Below are positions 29,437-35,813 of a stretch of 36,177 bases of DNA, piece by piece (the stretch's first letter is position 1; each line of letters starts with the position of its first letter). Source of the stretch: an uncultured Opitutia bacterium. Its GTDB lineage: Bacteria; Verrucomicrobiota; Verrucomicrobiia; Opitutales; Opitutaceae. The DNA is taken from the NCBI GenBank assembly GCA_903896015.1, contig CAITWF010000063.1:1-36177 (forward strand), read 5' to 3'. The notes below the pieces were generated by a model. That model had not been told where the DNA came from and made no database searches. It saw nothing but the letters and a program-made list of their open reading frames with translations. The position numbers and the translations under genes were made by a program.

Positions 29437-31314
29437 TCACCGGTGCAACCTACTGAGAAAACGGGCGACATTTACGACGTCGGCGTCGTCGAGGTATTCG
29501 TGACCAGCCATGGTAGTGCCAGGCACGCCGAATTTGATAATCTTCGTGATCGCCGTGAGAGGGCTTGAGTCGTCAGGGGCAATTCGCCGCCACGCGTCAT
29601 GGGAAAAATCGGGTGGTTTAAGAGTAAGTTTGGCAGAAAGCGGTCCGTCGCCACGAGCTTCTGGACCATGGCAAGCGGCGCACAATTGAATGAAGAGTTG
29701 CCGGGCCTTCCGCTCGTTAGGCGCGCTCGCAAGCGCATTCGCCGAGGGCTCCCATTTCGTGATACTTGCCATTCGTTGCCCGATCGTTTCGGGGCCGAGC
29801 GATGAAAGATAGACGACGAGTGAATCGCCACGTGAACCGCCCGCCTCAAACAATCCAGCATAGCTTGGCATACGTGACCCTGGCGTTAGCAATTGCGGTC
29901 CGATCAGATGCAGTCGCTGCCACTCGGGCGAACGCCGGTTGCCCACGTTCGTCAAGTCCGGGCCCTGCCGGCGGAGGCCGAGTAACGGAGGCGTCTCGGT
30001 GAGGCGCTCCGTCAGCGGTTGGGCCGGTCCCCACCACAGAATTTCCTGTGCAACGTTGGGACGGAGATATTGCGAGTGGCACGTGATGCAGCCCTCGGCG
30101 ATGTAGACCTCGCGTCCGCGGGCAATCATTCCGTCGTCCGCGCGTGTCTTACCAGACGCCAGGCCGAACACGCCGATCACCATCGCGGCGAGCATCGCCG
30201 ATTTTCTCCTCTGGATGCCACTCACGACTAGCGACGAAAAAACAAAGACGACGGCGATACCGACAAACCAAGCGGGAATTGCGTGCAGGTCCTGCACCAT
30301 CCCGATGCCCAGCGCCGATCCCATCCAGCCGGCCACCGCAAAGAGCGCCGCGGCCAGCAAAGGTCGGGCGCGCCAAGCGGGATAATAAACCAGCGCGACC
30401 GAGTAAGCCGACACGCCTGCCGTGTAGAGCACGCGGGCGCCGGCGAAAGTCCCCGCGGCTCCACCGAGCGCGAGATCGGCGGCGGCTAGCAGAGCCATCG
30501 CCACGCCTGCCGTGACCGTGATGAGTTGGAAATCAAGCGCGAATCCTGCCACGACCGCACCCACCAGATGCGTGATCGCGTTGCCATAGAGGATCCACGA
30601 TCCGGTCCACGTCTGGGCGCGCAAATGAGGCGTGTGTTGCAAAATGTAGAAACCCGCTGAATCGAGCCAGACGAGCGCCAGAAAAATTAAACCCCACAGC
30701 AGCCAGTTCAACCGCTCGCGCGCCGGAATCTCGACAGAGCCGGGATGCATATTACGCGCGGCCCACACTCCCAGCAGCGCGAGTCCCGCCGAAATTTCCG
30801 TTTGCACCACCGGCGTCGCTTCAAACGCAACCGGCAAATTCACGATCGCATACGCGAGCCCGGTGCCGAGGCCGCACCATAGGCCGAGGCGCTTCGCGCC
30901 GACCACCGAGCGCAATCCCGCGGACAGCGTCACCGTTGTCCAGCCCAAGCTGAGTCCCACACCGGCGATCGTGAGCCAAAGCTCCGCTCGTCCCGCGAAC
31001 ACCGTGGCAATCGCCGAGAGCGCACAACCCGCAAAGCCGCCCGCCAATGCGCTCTGGAAACGATCGAGGCGGAAGTGGCTCGCCGCCAGAAAACTGCCGG
31101 CGACTCCGCCTGCGCACAGCATGGTCAGCAACGGACGCAGGGCGAGCTCGCCGCTGAACCAAGGCTTGGCCAGTTCCAGCAGTGCGAATTCGGCGAACAG
31201 CAGGAAATATCCGTAGGTCGCGGCAATCGCGACCACGGTGGCCCTTATCGCCGCGGAGTGCGACGGGAGTGACTTTTGATCAGGAGGCACCGGCGTTCTC
31301 CGTTTTCTCTCCAC
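29437..31314 (-). CDS. MFS-like membrane domain fused to CcoO-like and second cytochrome c
   Basis: 625 residues, GTG start at 31314 (another GTG is at 31290). Residues about 20-368 hold twelve hydrophobic helices with an MFS-like 6+6 layout. A further helix (about 372-387) leads to a periplasmic part. There the first heme-c site CITCH is at 409-413 in GREVYIAEGCITCHSQYLRP, followed by GPDLTNVGNRRSPEWQRLHL and the Met ligand of RMPSY (482); this closely follows CcoO, the mono-heme subunit of cbb3 oxidase. The second site CAACH is at 545-549, with a possible Met ligand at 602 (GTTMAGHEYL). A fusion of a transporter-like domain with CcoO and CcoP-like parts is not the normal cbb3 layout. The start overlaps the upstream CcoN-like gene by 35 nt. 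The function of the membrane domain is unknown; copper import of the CcoA type is one possibility only. Confidence 0.85.
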   Translation of the reverse strand: MERKRRTPVPPDQKSLPSHSAAIRATVVAIAATYGYFLLFAEFALLELAKPWFSGELALRPLLTMLCAGGVAGSFLAASHFRLDRFQSALAGGFAGCALSAIATVFAGRAELWLTIAGVGLSLGWTTVTLSAGLRSVVGAKRLGLWCGLGTGLAYAIVNLPVAFEATPVVQTEISAGLALLGVWAARNMHPGSVEIPARERLNWLLWGLIFLALVWLDSAGFYILQHTPHLRAQTWTGSWILYGNAITHLVGAVVAGFALDFQLITVTAGVAMALLAAADLALGGAAGTFAGARVLYTAGVSAYSVALVYYPAWRARPLLAAALFAVAGWMGSALGIGMVQDLHAIPAWFVGIAVVFVFSSLVVSGIQRRKSAMLAAMVIGVFGLASGKTRADDGMIARGREVYIAEGCITCHSQYLRPNVAQEILWWGPAQPLTERLTETPPLLGLRRQGPDLTNVGNRRSPEWQRLHLIGPQLLTPGSRMPSYAGLFEAGGSRGDSLVVYLSSLGPETIGQRMASITKWEPSANALASAPNERKARQLFIQLCAACHGPEARGDGPLSAKLTLKPPDFSHDAWRRIAPDDSSPLTAITKIIKFGVPGTTMAGHEYLDDADVVNVARFLSRLHR

Positions 31315-32548
31315 GAAGCGATTGCCACCACCAGACTATCGACACGCCCAGCAAAGCCACTCCGGTCAACAACCGCACGGCGTAGATCGCCTGCGTCCAC
31401 CGAGCCGCCAGAAACACGTCATCCCAATGATCGGGCTCGAACCAACCGAGCGCCAGCAACATTGCCACCTGCACGACACACGCGCCCTGCCAGAGCCAGA
31501 AATGCCGCAGCGCTTTCAACCCGCGCAGCTCCACCAGCACGGCAATATTCGCGCACGTCACGAGTCCCGCCATCGCGAGATGGGCGTGGCCGACCATTGC
31601 GTTGGTGTATTTCAATCGCTCGGAGACGCCGGGGAGAAACGTCCAAAACCCCGAAAGAACGAGCGCCGCCCACCACCCGAAGGCTGCGGCCCACCAGCGT
31701 CGCGCCGCAGGTTCGCCGTTGCTGCCGCCAAAGTAGGTCCAAGCCAGCGGCAGCCAGCCGAGCAGCGTGGCAAGCCCCACGATCTGCGCCGTTTCGTGAT
31801 GCGACGCATCACCGTGCTCGATCGCGATGCAGACCAAAACCGAGCACAAAAAATATCCCCAATACCACGCCCGCCGATTTTTTCGGCTGATGCCAAGCAC
31901 TTCGGCGATGAAGCCATAGATCGCGACGATGCCGAGTGTCGATGCCAGCAGCCGCGCGCCGGTTGCGCCGCCGCTGTCAGGATTTACGCTGGGATAAACA
32001 TCGCGACCGGCCGCCCAGTGCACCGCGTTCGGTACCACTAACAAAACGATCAGCAACCCAATTCGCGCCGCGCATCCCGCCTGGCTGAATTGATCGCGGC
32101 GCCACCAGACATGCGCGGAGAGCAGACTCCACAAAAACAGCATCGCCACCGGCAGCAGCGGTCGGGCCCATCCATGCCATTCCAGAAAAGGCTTGCCGCT
32201 CGAAATTCCCGAAAGCCACGAAAGCCCGCCGAGCGCGAGAGCGAGCGACCAGGCGCCGAGCGCAATTCGCGCCTGCCCGACGGCCTGCGGGTGACGGACG
32301 TCAACGCACCACGCGAGCAGCACGCCGACCAGCGGCAGCGCACACGAGCCATAGAGCTGCCAGTCGAGATGGAGCGGAATCCAGCGCCCATAGGTCCACG
32401 AGCCGAGCGCCGAATTCAGCGCGGGCCAGACCAGAAGCGCTGCGAGCAACACGCCGACGGCATTGCCGGCGGCAAGCCAGCCAAACGTGTGTCGGGCGAC
32501 GACGTGCGAGATGTCGGCGTGGCGCCCGCGGTCTCGGTTTGAGCTCAC
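31280..32548 (-). CDS. CcoN (cbb3 oxidase subunit I) homologue, probably without a copper-B site
   Basis: 422 residues, GTG start at 32548 sharing GTGA with the ATPase stop. About twelve hydrophobic helices. Helix 2 has YGRWIPLHLDWQLYGS with H60, matching the low-spin heme His of CcoN (GRLRPLHTNAV-type). The late helix AMVGHAHLAMAG has H321 and H323, matching the HxH pair that binds both hemes. In contrast, where CcoN has GHNAVGFF (copper ligand and helix 6), this protein has GATGARLL, and the helix-7 His pair is replaced by IEHGDASHHETAQ, so at least one and probably most copper ligands are missing. My alignment is by eye. Length is somewhat below the usual 450-480 of CcoN. Likely a b-type cytochrome that passes electrons to or from the cytochrome c protein encoded next. 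Confidence 0.8.
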   Translation of the reverse strand: MSSNRDRGRHADISHVVARHTFGWLAAGNAVGVLLAALLVWPALNSALGSWTYGRWIPLHLDWQLYGSCALPLVGVLLAWCVDVRHPQAVGQARIALGAWSLALALGGLSWLSGISSGKPFLEWHGWARPLLPVAMLFLWSLLSAHVWWRRDQFSQAGCAARIGLLIVLLVVPNAVHWAAGRDVYPSVNPDSGGATGARLLASTLGIVAIYGFIAEVLGISRKNRRAWYWGYFLCSVLVCIAIEHGDASHHETAQIVGLATLLGWLPLAWTYFGGSNGEPAARRWWAAAFGWWAALVLSGFWTFLPGVSERLKYTNAMVGHAHLAMAGLVTCANIAVLVELRGLKALRHFWLWQGACVVQVAMLLALGWFEPDHWDDVFLAARWTQAIYAVRLLTGVALLGVSIVWWWQSLRGEKTENAGAS

Positions 32549-33222
32549 GAATCAAACACCTTTCCGTCGCGCACCCGCAACCGCCGGTGACACGCCTCGG
32601 CAAAGCGGCGTTCGTGGGTAGCCAGCACGACGGCAAGTCCGTAGCTGACGGCTAATTCTTTCAGCAGCGAAAAAATCAGTTCGCCCGTCACTTCATCCAG
32701 CGAGCCCGTCGGTTCGTCGGCCAGCAAGAGCCGCGGCGCATTCATGAGCGCGCGGCAAATCGCCACGCGCTGACGCTCGCCGCCCGAAAGATCCTGAATG
32801 CGGTGATCGAGCCGATGCGCGATGCCGACCTGCTCGGCGAGCAGTTGCAGCCGCGCGGTCGTCTTCGCGGCCGGCTGACCGACAGCCAGCGCTGGCACGC
32901 GCAGATTTTCCGCGACCGTCAGATCGGCGATGAGATTGTGCAGTTGAAAAACGAATCCCAGATGCCGCCGCCGCAGTTCCAGCCGGTCCGACTCTAGCCG
33001 GGGGTCAAAACCGCACACTCGCAACTCTCCGCGTTCCGAAATATCGAGTCCGCCGATGAGATGCAGCAAGGTGCTCTTACCCGATCCCGAAGCGCCCCAC
33101 AATGCGACGATTTCACCGGCTCGCACCTCGAGCGACGCGCCCTGCAATACCGGCACGCGTCCGCCATCGTAGGCCTTCCACGCATCGCGCACCGCGACGA
33201 TAATTTCGCCCGGCTCACTCAT
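32545..33222 (-). CDS. ABC transporter ATPase, LolD/MacB type
   Basis: 225 residues from the ATG at 33222 (MSEPGEIIVAVRDAWKAYDG); the longer frame overlaps the permease too far. Walker A GASGSGKST at 43-51, Q-loop VFQLHNLI near 91-98, signature LSGGERQRV at 145-153, Walker B LLLADE at 165-170, D-loop SLDE and switch H203 (ATHERR). Sequence style (LRRRHLGFVFQLHNLIADLT, NAPRLLLADEPTGSLD) is that of LolD, MacB and related ATPases. It powers the FtsX-type permease encoded upstream, which it overlaps by 8 nt; its stop overlaps the next gene by 4 nt. Confidence 0.95.
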   Translation of the reverse strand: MSEPGEIIVAVRDAWKAYDGGRVPVLQGASLEVRAGEIVALWGASGSGKSTLLHLIGGLDISERGELRVCGFDPRLESDRLELRRRHLGFVFQLHNLIADLTVAENLRVPALAVGQPAAKTTARLQLLAEQVGIAHRLDHRIQDLSGGERQRVAICRALMNAPRLLLADEPTGSLDEVTGELIFSLLKELAVSYGLAVVLATHERRFAEACHRRLRVRDGKVFDS

Positions 33223-34327
33223 AGCGCAGGGCCTCCGCCGGCTGAATGCGCGATGCAAATCGTGCCGGATAAATCGCCCCACAGACCGCCGTGACGATCG
33301 CAGTCACAATGATCCCGGCCACAACGGCGAGCCCGACATTGGCCTGTACGTAGCCCTGAAACAGCGGGATGTGCGGCAGTGTGGCCAGGACCGCCGCACC
33401 GAGCGCAAAGCCCAAAGCGAGTCCGGCGAGCGCCACTGATACCGCTTCGCCAAAAATCAGCGCCGCGACCTGCAACTCCGAAAAGCCGCACACCCGCAGC
33501 ACCGCGATTTCACGGATGCGACTGAAGACGGAGAGCAGCATCGTGTTGGCGACTCCGAGGCCGCCGAGGAAGAACGCGCAGAGCCCGACGGCCCAGGCCG
33601 TCATCTTCATGACCCGAAAGGAATGGTAGCTCTGGTTGAACTCGCGGTTTTCGAGCGCGATCAATCCGGGATGCGCCGCCTCCACCGCACGCTTAAACGC
33701 GTCGCCCGCCGATCGATCCCGCAGCTTCACGGCCAGCACCGAGCACACGCCCGCGCGGTGGAAAAAATCCTGGGCGGCCGCCAACGGAAGAAAAACTCCG
33801 CCATCCTCGAAACCATTTTCCGTTTTCAGGATGCCCGCGACGCGCAAGGTCGTCGCGCCGATCGGCACGTCGTCGCCGAGGTGCGCGTGCAAAAACTCGG
33901 CGGCGCGCGAACCGAGAAAGATTTCGCCCGGGTGGCGGCCAAACTCCGCGCGGCCGCCTGCGATCCACTCGGCGCGTTCAAGTCGAGAATCATCCGCCGC
34001 CACGCCAAAACAGGTGATCACTGGAAATCCTGGGGAAGACACGATGCCAAACAGCAGCGGTTGGGCGGTGGCGACATTGGGCAGCGCGCGAATCGCCGCA
34101 CTGTCTTGATCGCGCACGGCACTGAAGAATAGGTCGGAAACGTTTTTCTCGAGCACGAGATAGTGGCTGTCCGTGGCGAGGATTCGCTCAAACATCCCGA
34201 TGGCCCCATTCACGATGCCGAGGATTGTGAGCATGGCCGCCACACCGAATCCAATGCCGGCCACCCCGATTAGCGCGCGCAGGCGGTGCCGGCGCAGGTT
34301 CACGAGTATGAGCGAGAGAAACTGCAT
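33215..34327 (-). CDS. ABC transporter permease, FtsX/MacB/LolC type
   Basis: 370 residues, ATG at 34327, one nt after the stop of the prenyl synthase gene. Layout: one N-terminal helix (LRALIGVAGIGFGVAAMLTILG, about residues 16-37), a periplasmic MacB-like core domain of about 190 residues, and three C-terminal helices containing the FtsX pattern GLGVANTMLLSVFSRIREIAVLR and ending in IYPARFASRIQPAEALRYE. Permeases of this group do not import solutes. They couple ATP use to moving lipoproteins, lipids, peptides or hydrophobic molecules, or to working on periplasmic partners. Here the partner may be the YceI protein or an isoprenoid; this is inferred from context. Confidence 0.93.
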   Translation of the reverse strand: MQFLSLILVNLRRHRLRALIGVAGIGFGVAAMLTILGIVNGAIGMFERILATDSHYLVLEKNVSDLFFSAVRDQDSAAIRALPNVATAQPLLFGIVSSPGFPVITCFGVAADDSRLERAEWIAGGRAEFGRHPGEIFLGSRAAEFLHAHLGDDVPIGATTLRVAGILKTENGFEDGGVFLPLAAAQDFFHRAGVCSVLAVKLRDRSAGDAFKRAVEAAHPGLIALENREFNQSYHSFRVMKMTAWAVGLCAFFLGGLGVANTMLLSVFSRIREIAVLRVCGFSELQVAALIFGEAVSVALAGLALGFALGAAVLATLPHIPLFQGYVQANVGLAVVAGIIVTAIVTAVCGAIYPARFASRIQPAEALRYE

Positions 34328-34328
34328 C

Positions 34329-35222
34329 TCAGGCAGCGATGAACATCCGATAGCGGCTCATCAAGAGCCGTTCGTGCCAATCAGCCAGATAAGTCCACTT
34401 CGCATCGCGTTCGCGCAGTTGCTTCACCTGCAACTCCGCCAGCCCGAGCAGACGCGCGATGCGCTGACGCGTCAGTGGTGCGCCGAGAGCAATCGTCAGG
34501 TTGGGCCGGCTGAGTGCGGCATCACGGCCAGGCGTTTTACCGATCGCACCCGTCGGGGCTGCGACATCGAGCAGATCGTCCATGGCCTGATAGGCCAGGG
34601 CCCAGTAAATACTCAGCGCGTGCAACGTTCGCCGTTCGCGCGGCCACGCGCTCGACGGCAACAACGGCAGTGTGATCGCGAGTCCCAGCAGCGCGCCGGT
34701 TTTTCGCCATGCGATCCGGCCGACCTCACGGGAAGCGCGGAGCCCGCGGCTAAACCGCAGATCCCATGCCTGCCCGCAAAGGATACCAGCGGCGCCGAGA
34801 GCGGAGTCGACGAGTTCGCAGGCTTGCTCGCGCACGGCGGCCGATTCCAGCAGGAATGCCCGTTGGACGAGCGCATAGGCGCGATTGATCAAGCTGAGCG
34901 CGGTCAGGATCGCCGTCGATTCGCCATACGTGCGGTGTAGGCACGGCAGCCCGCGGCGCAATTCAGCGTCATCCATGCAGGGCAGGTCGTCGAGGATGAG
35001 CGAGGCCTGATGCCAGTATTCCAAGGCACAGGCGAGTTGCTCTGCTGTGGCTGCCTCCAGGCCATGACTTTTGGCCGCAGCCATGACCAATCCCGCACGC
35101 ACCATGCGGCCCGGATTCGAAACCGCTTTCGCGAGGGCGTCGCACAAGACGGGCTCGGTGGTCGCTTCGCCGGGGTTGTTGGCGGAAAGCACGCGCGCAA
35201 CCTCCTCCGAGTTCTCAATCAT
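34329..35222 (-). CDS. Prenyl (isoprenyl) diphosphate synthase
   Basis: 297 residues, ATG at 35222. First Asp-rich motif DDLPCMDD at 78-85 with RRG following (bacterial farnesyl/geranylgeranyl type, DDx4D); second Asp-rich motif DDLLD at 215-219, followed by GAIGKTPGRDA, the Lys-rich end usual in the family. It condenses isopentenyl diphosphate with allylic diphosphates; product length cannot be fixed from sequence (IspA-like C15-C20 range is likely by motif type). The N-terminal AGLVMAAAKSHG replaces the usual RP-(L/M)-x-x region in part, so activity should not be taken for granted. It lies 18 nt after the YceI gene and 1 nt before the permease gene. Confidence 0.88.
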   Translation of the reverse strand: MIENSEEVARVLSANNPGEATTEPVLCDALAKAVSNPGRMVRAGLVMAAAKSHGLEAATAEQLACALEYWHQASLILDDLPCMDDAELRRGLPCLHRTYGESTAILTALSLINRAYALVQRAFLLESAAVREQACELVDSALGAAGILCGQAWDLRFSRGLRASREVGRIAWRKTGALLGLAITLPLLPSSAWPRERRTLHALSIYWALAYQAMDDLLDVAAPTGAIGKTPGRDAALSRPNLTIALGAPLTRQRIARLLGLAELQVKQLRERDAKWTYLADWHERLLMSRYRMFIAA

Positions 35223-35240
35223 CGTCGGGTGCGCGTGCAG

Positions 35241-35813
35241 TTACGGCGCTGCCACGGCACCGGCCAGATGGAATCGCACCGTGACTAGCGGATCGACTTT
35301 CAGCACGGCGAACTTCCGGATGACAGGCAGACCGAATACGCGGGTGTCGACGACGGCTTCTCCGTCCACGGTCACGCGGGCCCCCTCGCGGGCAATCGAT
35401 GCGGGGAACGAAATATCGTGAGTCGAGCCATGGAGCGTCAACCGGCCTCGGACGGTGAATTTTTCCGGAGAGACGGCGGTAAGCGAATCCAGCGTGAAGT
35501 CGCCGTCGGGAAACTTTTCGGTCTGCTGCCACTCGTTCATTTCCCGATCCCGCTTCTCATTCCCGGTCTTCACGTCGGAAAAATGAAACGCGACCTTGGA
35601 GGTGGTAACGGCCCCCGTGTCACGATCGACCAGAACCGTCGCGACGTAGTCCGCCAGTTTTCCGACGAACGAATCGGCGGTCGCCTTCACCGCGATCTCC
35701 ACGTGTGAGCTAGCCTTGTCGATCGTCAGCGGGGCCTCCGCGGCCGACATGGTCACAGCAAGCAGACTTGCGGCGAAGATAGAGAGCAGGCCGGAGAACG
35801 GTTTCATCGTCAT
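35241..35813 (-). CDS. YceI-family periplasmic protein
   Basis: 190 residues; the ATG at 35807 (MKPFSG) is an alternative start that better fits a signal peptide. The signal peptide ends near SAAEA. The mature part is the YceI lipocalin-like barrel: LTIDKASSHVEIAVKA, FHFSDVKTGNEKRDREMNE (typical D-x-x-T-G-N-x-x-R-D), KFPDGDFTLDSL, GRLTLHGSTHDISFP, and the C-terminal FGLPVIRKFAVLKVDPLVTVRF. Known YceI proteins bind polyisoprenoids or isoprenoid quinones inside the barrel and are often next to b-type cytochromes. It is the first gene of the six-gene operon and precedes a prenyl diphosphate synthase, which fits an isoprenoid ligand. Confidence 0.93.
   Translation of the reverse strand: MTMKPFSGLLSIFAASLLAVTMSAAEAPLTIDKASSHVEIAVKATADSFVGKLADYVATVLVDRDTGAVTTSKVAFHFSDVKTGNEKRDREMNEWQQTEKFPDGDFTLDSLTAVSPEKFTVRGRLTLHGSTHDISFPASIAREGARVTVDGEAVVDTRVFGLPVIRKFAVLKVDPLVTVRFHLAGAVAAP

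What the first reader, a model, noticed from the sequence alone, without database searches (positions are those of the whole stretch)
29437..35813. Six-gene operon linking a YceI lipocalin, prenyl synthase, ABC exporter and CcoN/CcoO-like cytochromes
Six minus-strand genes are packed with gaps of 18 and 1 nt, then overlaps of 8, 4 and 35 nt. The order is YceI protein, prenyl diphosphate synthase, FtsX/MacB permease, LolD-like ATPase, CcoN homologue, MFS-CcoO-cytochrome c fusion. I know of no named system with this set. YceI proteins bind isoprenoids or quinones, the synthase makes isoprenoid chains, the ABC pair typically moves hydrophobic or lipidated molecules, and the last two genes look like an electron-transfer module. 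Hypothesis: a system that makes or moves an isoprenoid cofactor for a dedicated membrane redox complex.
Basis: partly seen in the sequence, partly recalled or inferred. Interest (0 to 1): 0.82.

Follow-up and report, generated by a model that had tools for sequence, protein, structure and literature searches.

The report
Conserved envelope lipid-redox gene cluster
A six-gene set that makes a short isoprenoid, moves lipids through the cell envelope and contains a respiratory-type cytochrome that seems to have lost its usual copper site is kept together across Verrucomicrobiota, and it may be an independent way of protecting or recharging membrane lipids with electrons.

Summary
The six genes are real and at the stated places, and they form a conserved set. 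Of 25 verrucomicrobial loci found through the CcoN-like gene (window included), 18 carry all six in the same order and strand, over three families. In one genome the set lies on three contigs yet is complete. In a 387-genome sample all 17 genomes with the cluster-type prenyl synthase, and 17 of 18 with the permease, also have the CcoN-like gene.

The CcoN-like protein has the cbb3/NOR fold and keeps three haem-ligand histidines in 25 of 25. The helix-VI CuB histidine is missing in 21 of 25, the window included; no sequence has the full CuB triad as aligned. It is not a canonical cbb3 oxidase; 23 of 25 hosts carry one separately. CcoO-type cytochrome c follows in 25 of 25, with an MFS domain in 22. 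The synthase is of the short-chain class and is usually a third copy; 19 of 25 hosts lack squalene/phytoene synthase. Some loci add envelope-lipid enzymes, a stress-type two-component system or, once, an HpnN-like exporter instead of the ABC pair.

Best reading: it works like BcnA-LcoA (YceI lipocalin plus haem-b cytochrome against lipid peroxidation), built from other parts. Function is inferred, not shown.

The parts
35241..35813 (-). YceI-family secreted lipocalin (190 aa, signal peptide by eye)
   Evidence: PF04264 E 1.7e-18; profile of 12 orthologues matches solved YceI lipocalins, best 5ixh E 3.8e-17, which PMC9113575 names as BcnA
34329..35222 (-). short-chain prenyl diphosphate synthase (297 aa), both Asp-rich motifs kept
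   Evidence: PF00348 E 9e-36; profile hits FPPS/GGPPS chains at up to 4e-50, octaprenyl/hexaprenyl synthases at about 1e-21 to 1e-24; D78, D79, D84 and D215, D216, D219 invariant in 11 of 11
33215..34327 (-). MacB/LolCE-type ABC permease (370 aa)
   Evidence: MacB_PCD 3.8e-18 and FtsX 3.8e-15; mean column identity 71% over 13 members, against 45-56% in my other alignments, whose members differ
32545..33222 (-). LolD-like ABC ATPase (225 aa from ATG)
   Evidence: ABC_tran 2.4e-33; best NCBIfam LolD 208.8 bits, below its cut-off 307.75
31280..32548 (-). CcoN-like membrane protein with haem-ligand histidines but without the canonical CuB triad (422 aa)
   Evidence: profile to CcoN 9g6b/3mk7 E 4e-5 and 7e-5; model pLDDT 82, Z 23-25 to cNOR and cbb3 subunit I; H60, H321, H323 in 25 of 25; Ala at the helix-VI CuB position
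29437..31314 (-). MFS-fold domain fused to a CcoO-like cytochrome c and a second cytochrome c domain (625 aa)
   Evidence: FixO 1.8e-23 and Cytochrom_C 1e-12; MFS fold Z 29.5 over 330 residues; MFS and CcoO are separate genes in L023-L026

Best explanation
The operon is an envelope lipid-redox maintenance module. The synthase makes a short-chain prenyl diphosphate that feeds an isoprenoid lipid (product unknown). The MacB/LolCE-type ABC pair, or in one lineage an HpnN-like RND exporter, takes that lipid or a damaged lipid out of the inner membrane. The YceI lipocalin carries it through the periplasm. A cbb3-derived cytochrome complex (CcoO/cytochrome c haems, CcoN-like haem b and a second haem on H321, with MFS and often a DUF4345-like protein as membrane partners) passes electrons from the cytochrome c pool to the isoprenoid or to lipid peroxidation products. 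It would thus work like BcnA-LcoA, in which a YceI lipocalin and a haem-b cytochrome keep down lipid peroxidation, but with a heme-copper-oxidase relative in place of cytochrome b561. Shown here: the gene set, its conservation and co-occurrence, the fold, the conserved haem-ligand positions, the missing helix-VI CuB histidine. Inferred: complex formation, substrate, direction of electron flow, protective role.
For: One unit: 18 of 25 loci keep all six in order. In G259 YceI-PPS, the ABC pair and CcoN-DUF4345-MFS-CcoO lie on three contigs, far from contig ends, all kept. 17 of 17 genomes with the cluster-type synthase have the CcoN-like gene, which 20 of 387 have (hypergeometric 6e-27, relatedness of genomes ignored); permease 17 of 18. 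Redox wire without canonical oxidase site: haem ligands 25 of 25, helix-VI His 4 of 25, distinct clade 99/98. Isoprenoid handling: three synthases in 21 of 25 genomes, and two in exactly the three that have none in the cluster or elsewhere of that type; isopentenyl diphosphate isomerase in 2 of 25 loci; HpnN/BstA-like exporter, below family cut-offs, instead of ABC in L054. Envelope-lipid and stress context: LtaS/EptA-like sulfatase plus PAP2 in 4 of 25, NAPE-PLD-like hydrolase in 7 of 25, response regulator plus kinase in 10 of 25, whose L022 members score best, below cut-off, against the heavy-metal CopR/CopS models; each 0 of 20 in controls. Analogue: a YceI lipocalin plus haem-b cytochrome lowers lipid peroxidation (PMC9113575: abstract, passages and discussion read).
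Against: No step is tested biochemically. The isoprenoids named for known YceI structures are octaprenyl compounds or ubiquinone-8, while this synthase is of the short-chain class, so its product need not be the YceI ligand. I recognised no gene in the loci that would use the prenyl diphosphate. After helix VII, His is common: H245 17, H250 22, H251 19 of 25, with a His-His pair at 250-251 in 18 of 25; this leaves room for a non-canonical metal site, and if that pair were the CuB pair in another register, one sequence (L025) would have a full triad. Cytochrome b561 family members are still found elsewhere in 15 of 25 genomes, so the cluster does not simply replace them. ABC is missing at the locus in L050, L052, L054 and L058, the synthase in L018, L048, L053 and L058. 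The lipid and stress neighbours occur in a minority of loci and not beside the window's copy. G200 has the ABC pair without the CcoN-like gene.
Confidence: 0.39

Rival explanations
1. One reading: the operon makes and installs a dedicated isoprenoid cofactor for its own membrane redox complex; YceI and ABC are cofactor chaperone and exporter.
For: Same gene set and co-occurrence.
Against: The cytochrome module persists without the synthase in G022, G400 and G169 (L018, L048, L053) and without YceI in G400's locus; an obligate cofactor route would hardly be so dispensable. Short-chain product class.
Confidence: 0.2
2. A divergent terminal reductase: the complex reduces O2, NO or another small molecule at haem b3 with a non-canonical metal or none; the other genes serve its assembly.
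For: cbb3/NOR fold, Z 23-25; haem b3 proximal His kept; His-His pair after helix VII in 18 of 25 and helix-VI His in 4 of 25; CcoO/cytochrome c partners.
Against: No complete CuB triad as aligned in 25 of 25; 23 of 25 hosts already have a strong CcoO elsewhere; does not explain YceI, synthase and lipid exporter.
Confidence: 0.16
3. Electrons run the other way: YceI delivers a reduced isoprenoid or quinol that the CcoN-like complex oxidises into the cytochrome c pool, making it a periplasmic quinol:cytochrome c oxidoreductase.
For: Two haem-c domains able to hand electrons on.
Against: I recognised no quinone-modifying gene in the loci; in canonical cbb3 the flow is from c to b (recalled).
Confidence: 0.12
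4. The genes share only regulation or a mobile island and not a joint process.
For: Patchy presence among relatives: 12 of 57, own genome included; G200 keeps the ABC pair alone.
Against: Order kept over three families, co-retention in G259 after break-up, 17 of 17 and 17 of 18 co-occurrence, 0 of 20 in control windows.
Confidence: 0.05

Closest known systems
BcnA-LcoA (YceI lipocalin plus cytochrome b561) lipid peroxyl radical detoxification, Burkholderia cenocepacia (PMC9113575)
   Same: YceI lipocalin next to a haem-b type membrane protein; best solved match of the YceI profile is BcnA 5ixh; that pair is linked in many species and sometimes fused according to the paper
   Different: The cytochrome is a CcoN relative with haem-c partners and not b561; own prenyl synthase and ABC exporter; no phenotype known
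cbb3-type cytochrome c oxidase CcoNO(P)
   Same: Fold, haem-ligand histidines, CcoO mono-haem subunit, extra cytochrome c domain
   Different: Helix-VI CuB His missing in 21 of 25 and no full triad as aligned, separate clade, MFS domain fused to CcoO, no separate CcoP, CcoQ or assembly gene among the six
LolCDE / MacB-type ABC exporters
   Same: Permease with MacB core and FtsX domain, LolD-like ATPase
   Different: A single permease gene; below the LolCE (86 of 362 bits) and LolD (209 of 308 bits) cut-offs
HpnN/BstA hopanoid and sterol exporters
   Same: An HpnN-like RND protein follows in the operon of L054, which lacks the ABC pair
   Different: Score below the HpnN and BstA cut-offs; that host has no squalene/phytoene synthase homologue, so a home-made hopanoid or sterol cargo is unlikely
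CcoA, MFS copper importer for cbb3
   Same: MFS protein tied to a CcoN relative
   Different: The MXXXM plus HXXXM motif pair is absent in 19 of 19 (motifs from passages of PMC5829832)

Membership tests
BcnA-LcoA system | YceI-family secreted lipocalin in the locus | tested here: met
   PF04264 E 1.7e-18; best solved match BcnA 5ixh; YceI in 23 of 25 loci
BcnA-LcoA system | cytochrome b561 (LcoA) gene adjacent | tested here: not met
   No PF01292 hit among the six window proteins nor at the cluster places of the 25 genomes; hits lie elsewhere
BcnA-LcoA system | loss of the genes raises membrane lipid peroxidation | not testable with these tools
   needs mutants; known for B. cenocepacia (PMC9113575)
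cbb3-type cytochrome c oxidase | haem b and b3 histidines (H60, H321, H323 here) | tested here: met
   25 of 25; aligned to CcoN; roles of the residues recalled
cbb3-type cytochrome c oxidase | CuB ligands: helix-VI His and helix-VII His-His | tested here: not met
   helix-VI His 4 of 25; His-His at the aligned place 0 of 25; a His-His pair six residues further on in 18 of 25, so at most 1 of 25 (L025) has all three in any register
cbb3-type cytochrome c oxidase | CcoO mono-haem subunit | tested here: met
   FixO E 1.8e-23; PF02433 at the cluster in 25 of 25 genomes
cbb3-type cytochrome c oxidase | oxygen reduction | not testable with these tools
   biochemistry needed
LolCDE lipoprotein exporter | LolC/LolE permease and LolD scores above family cut-offs | tested here: not met
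   one permease, 86.4 of 362.45 bits; ATPase 208.8 of 307.75 bits
Short-chain prenyl diphosphate synthase (FPPS/GGPPS) | class similarity and two Asp-rich motifs | tested here: met
   no NCBIfam equivalog cut-off is reached
Short-chain prenyl diphosphate synthase (FPPS/GGPPS) | product chain length | not testable with these tools
   enzyme assay needed
Carotenoid or hopanoid biosynthesis locus | squalene/phytoene synthase in the genome | tested here: not met
   PF00494 absent from the own genome and from 19 of 25 hosts in all; present in 6, all of family f23
[quoted passage not shown]
   no sequence of 19 holds both motifs

The most novel reading that the evidence does not exclude
The CcoN-like complex is a new class of heme-copper-superfamily enzyme: with CuB gone, the b3-type haem becomes a peroxidase-like site open to the membrane that takes electrons from cytochrome c through CcoO and reduces lipid hydroperoxides, or a dedicated isoprenoid antioxidant delivered by YceI and the ABC pair. 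A respiratory oxidase would thus have been turned into a membrane lipid-repair enzyme with its own isoprenoid supply.
Probability: 0.13. Interest if true: 0.9.

Novelty: new variant of a known kind. Interest (0 to 1): 0.7.

Why it matters
How Gram-negative bacteria cope with lipid peroxidation is little known; the abstract of PMC9113575 calls it virtually unknown. This set ties isoprenoid synthesis, a lipid-type exporter, a periplasmic lipocalin and an electron-transfer complex into one operon, and it does so with a respiratory-oxidase relative that has lost the canonical oxygen site. If the reading holds, it is a second origin of the lipocalin-cytochrome principle and a new job for the heme-copper fold. 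The operon gives a compact target for knock-outs and purification in related isolates.

Tried and rejected
Standard cbb3 oxidase: rejected because no sequence of 25 has the CuB triad as aligned and the clade is separate. A separate strong CcoO is found in 23 of 25 hosts; G044 and G370 have only weak further hits, so there the cluster holds the best FixO match.

Corrected on checking: I first took CcoN, the DUF4345-like gene, MFS and CcoO to be one fused protein in L055-L057, because one ORF of 1,123-1,133 codons covers them. One search shows that the DUF4345-like gene between them is read in another frame with its own start and stop, so the link in the long ORF is out-of-frame sequence. A fusion of CcoN with MFS-CcoO is therefore not shown, and DUF4345 is not fused. 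The MFS-CcoO fusion stands (18 of 25 loci; 4 have separate genes, 3 lack MFS). With this, and with the His-His pair at 250-251, I lowered the best reading from 0.42 to 0.39 and the novel case from 0.15 to 0.13, and raised the reductase rival from 0.13 to 0.16.

Carotenoid, squalene or hopanoid pathway: PF00494 absent from 19 of 25 hosts, own genome included. CcoA-like copper import: motif pair absent. Quinone-tail synthesis: the synthase groups with short-chain and not long-chain enzymes.

The first gene call put genes on the wrong strand in GC-rich loci such as L021 and L024; I retrained it on homologous regions and checked L018, L021 and L024 frame by frame. The about 160-aa neighbour protein looked thioredoxin-like by eye, but the L055 member has no Pfam or NCBIfam match and no Cys is invariant, so no redox role is claimed; 'REDOXIN' in my scripts is only a label. 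Promoter- and terminator-like sites were no more frequent than in shuffles. The one genome-contig scan returned a single locus, L016, probably the same contig as G001's; the plasmid search found no match; I had no route to other phyla.

Literature: searches listed no paper that I could recognise as describing this gene set or a CuB-less CcoN-like protein; only listings were seen, apart from PMC9113575 (abstract, passages, discussion) and PMC5829832 (passages). One search is no test, since 627 papers held any two of its terms and ten were listed. Only open-licence papers are held.

G001, G014, G020, G029 and G044 came from the relatives search and are not in the 387-genome tallies. The E-value limits (1e-60; 1e-70) were set by me to keep out other synthases and permeases; the weakest accepted hits were 1.7e-83 and 2.7e-170. 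The second structure model has low confidence beyond about residue 345, so only its MFS part was used.


Full report
WHAT WAS CHECKED. The window is the whole contig C63 of a 4.96-Mb genome in 123 contigs. Its closest relative here, G001, has a contig of the same length (117,976 bases) as CAIMFY010000083.1, an 'uncultured Opitutae bacterium'. Six minus-strand ORFs lie as described. Pfam gives YceI, polyprenyl_synt, MacB_PCD plus FtsX, ABC_tran, and FixO plus cytochrome c for five of them; the CcoN-like protein has no hit at E 0.1 and only COX1 at E 0.34. The window ends 364 bases upstream of YceI. In G001 the next gene upstream on that strand lies 238 bases away and is none of the families described here, so six genes appear to be the whole set there.

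CONSERVATION. The CcoN-like gene was found in 12 of 57 relatives and in 20 of 387 genomes sampled over the phylum, the own genome counted in both; together 25 genomes in four families (f1, f9 of the same order, f23 of the same class, f44 of another class). Around it, YceI, synthase, permease, ATPase, CcoN-like and CcoO follow in the same order and on one strand in 18 of 25 loci, in families f1, f9 and f23. This counts L023 and L026, where other genes are inserted near YceI. The seven exceptions: L018 (no synthase), L048 (no YceI, no synthase), L053 (no synthase, no MFS domain), L050 and L052 (no ABC, no MFS domain), L054 (no ABC), L058 (only CcoN-like, DUF4345-like, MFS-CcoO). A DUF4345-like gene was detected between CcoN and MFS in 17 of 25 loci (the Pfam match of the L022 member is weak, E 0.03). 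MFS and CcoO are one protein in 18 of 25 loci and separate genes in L023-L026. Twenty control windows of 20 kb from 12 of these genomes contained none of 15 tested families at my thresholds (0 of 20; MFS-CcoO was not among the 15).

CO-OCCURRENCE. In the same 387 genomes the cluster-type synthase occurs in 17, all 17 with the CcoN-like gene; the hypergeometric figure is 6e-27, with relatedness of genomes ignored. The cluster-type permease occurs in 18, 17 of them with the CcoN-like gene. The exception is G200, which has the ABC pair, a YceI hit about 8 kb away and no CcoN-like gene. The most telling case is G259: YceI and synthase on contig 14 (with the NAPE-PLD-like gene and the 160-aa protein), the ABC pair on contig 45, CcoN-DUF4345-MFS-CcoO on contig 79, each well inside its contig. 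The modules are kept although they are no longer neighbours.

THE CcoN-LIKE PROTEIN. A profile of 12 members matches solved CcoN chains (9g6b E 3.7e-5, 3mk7 E 7e-5). The predicted structure (pLDDT 82) matches cNOR and cbb3 subunit I at Z 23-25 over 378-394 residues, quinol NOR at 20-22.5 and other heme-copper oxidases at 17-19.5. H60, H321 and H323 are invariant in 25 of 25; by alignment to CcoN these are the haem b and b3 ligands (roles recalled from cbb3 structures). The helix-VI His of CuB is present in 4 of 25 only (L023-L026, one group in the tree) and otherwise Ala, Ser, Thr or Gly. At the place aligned with the helix-VII His-His pair (244-245) 0 of 25 have two His; L022 has a pair at 245-246. 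But His is common just beyond: H245 17, H250 22, H251 19 of 25, and a pair at 250-251 in 18 of 25. So no sequence has the triad as aligned, at most one (L025) in a shifted register, and a non-canonical ligand or metal cannot be excluded. The family is separated from canonical CcoN with support 99/98. 23 of 25 hosts also have a strong CcoO elsewhere; the own genome has a fused canonical CcoN-CcoO on contig 55.

THE PARTNERS. The MFS part has the MFS fold (Z 29.5 over 330 residues); the CcoA copper-import motif pair is absent in 19 of 19. The synthase keeps both Asp-rich motifs in 11 of 11 and falls in the FPPS/GGPPS class. 21 of 25 hosts have three PF00348 places, G362 has four, and G022, G400 and G169, whose clusters lack the synthase, have two; G259 keeps it elsewhere. 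Squalene/phytoene synthase is absent from 19 of 25. The YceI profile has B. cenocepacia BcnA (5ixh) as best solved match (naming from PMC9113575). Neighbours that recur: response regulator plus histidine kinase, 10 of 25 (the L022 pair scores best against heavy-metal CopR/CopS models, below cut-off); LtaS/EptA-like sulfatase and PAP2 with best match to lipid-A phosphatase, below cut-off, 4 of 25; NAPE-PLD-like hydrolase, 7 of 25 (human NAPE-PLD 4qn9 E 3e-65 for the L055 member); an unannotated about 160-aa protein, 8 of 25; isopentenyl diphosphate isomerase, 2 of 25. In L054, from another class, the ABC pair is missing and the operon runs on into a NAPE-PLD-like type of metallo-hydrolase (Lactamase_B_2) and an HpnN-like RND exporter.

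HOW IT MOST LIKELY WORKS. The parts fit a chain: make an isoprenoid, pull it or another lipid out of the inner membrane, carry it in the periplasm, and exchange electrons with it through a haem-b/haem-c complex. PMC9113575 (abstract, passages and discussion read) shows that BcnA (YceI) and LcoA (cytochrome b561) lower membrane lipid peroxidation and proposes that LcoA re-reduces a quinone bound to BcnA. I propose that this cluster works like that pair, with the CcoN-like complex in LcoA's place and with an own supply and extraction route. Substrate, direction of electron flow and phenotype are inference. It is not a member of the BcnA-LcoA system as described, since the b561 gene is absent, nor of cbb3 oxidase, since the CuB triad is not met.

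NOVELTY AND LIMITS. My full-text searches listed no description of this gene set or of a CuB-less CcoN-like protein (open-licence PMC papers only). All positive genomes are from one phylum, as the tools gave no route to others apart from plasmids (no match). The co-occurrence figures rest on related genomes; the patchiness within the family and the G259 case argue against pure inheritance by descent.

Noticed in passing
L055:9379-12771, L056:7178-10549, L057:7181-10582: In three genomes of genus g83 the CcoN-like frame stays open through a DUF4345-like gene that is read in another frame, and continues into the in-frame MFS-CcoO. Either a long fusion with a nested overlapping gene or a chance lack of stop codons.
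   Followed up: partly
L094:5069-6499 (G000:C43): A further CcoN-like paralogue in the same genome in which the haem-ligand positions look lost by eye (no HxH motif), followed by CcoO-like and cytochrome c ORFs and preceded by a protein that looks like ActF of alternative complex III (recalled, not searched).
   Followed up: partly
L056:1903-4461: In G350 the canonical CcoN-CcoO gene lies about 2.7 kb from the cluster's end.
   Followed up: no
window:19839-25481: A double-length UvrA (1,880 aa; 1,819 bits to the 943-position UvrA model, three matched stretches).
   Followed up: partly
window:2852-6325: Haem biosynthesis genes in a row: protoporphyrinogen oxidase, hemE, oxygen-dependent coproporphyrinogen oxidase, about 23 kb from the operon.
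   Followed up: partly
L096:1840-2505 (G000:C12): A second YceI gene in the genome (149.8 bits), without a cytochrome b561 that I could recognise by eye among the ORFs listed beside it; no PF01292 hit on that contig.
   Followed up: partly
L058:4809-7513: Opposite-strand trio beside the split cytochrome module that looks like type III polyketide synthase, FAD oxidoreductase and methyltransferase (by eye only).
   Followed up: no
L055:5514-5999 and relatives (A5): About 160-aa protein family, most with a signal peptide by eye, with the motif FALPKM(K/R)KY, near the cluster in 8 of 25 loci; no Pfam or NCBIfam match for the L055 member.
   Followed up: partly
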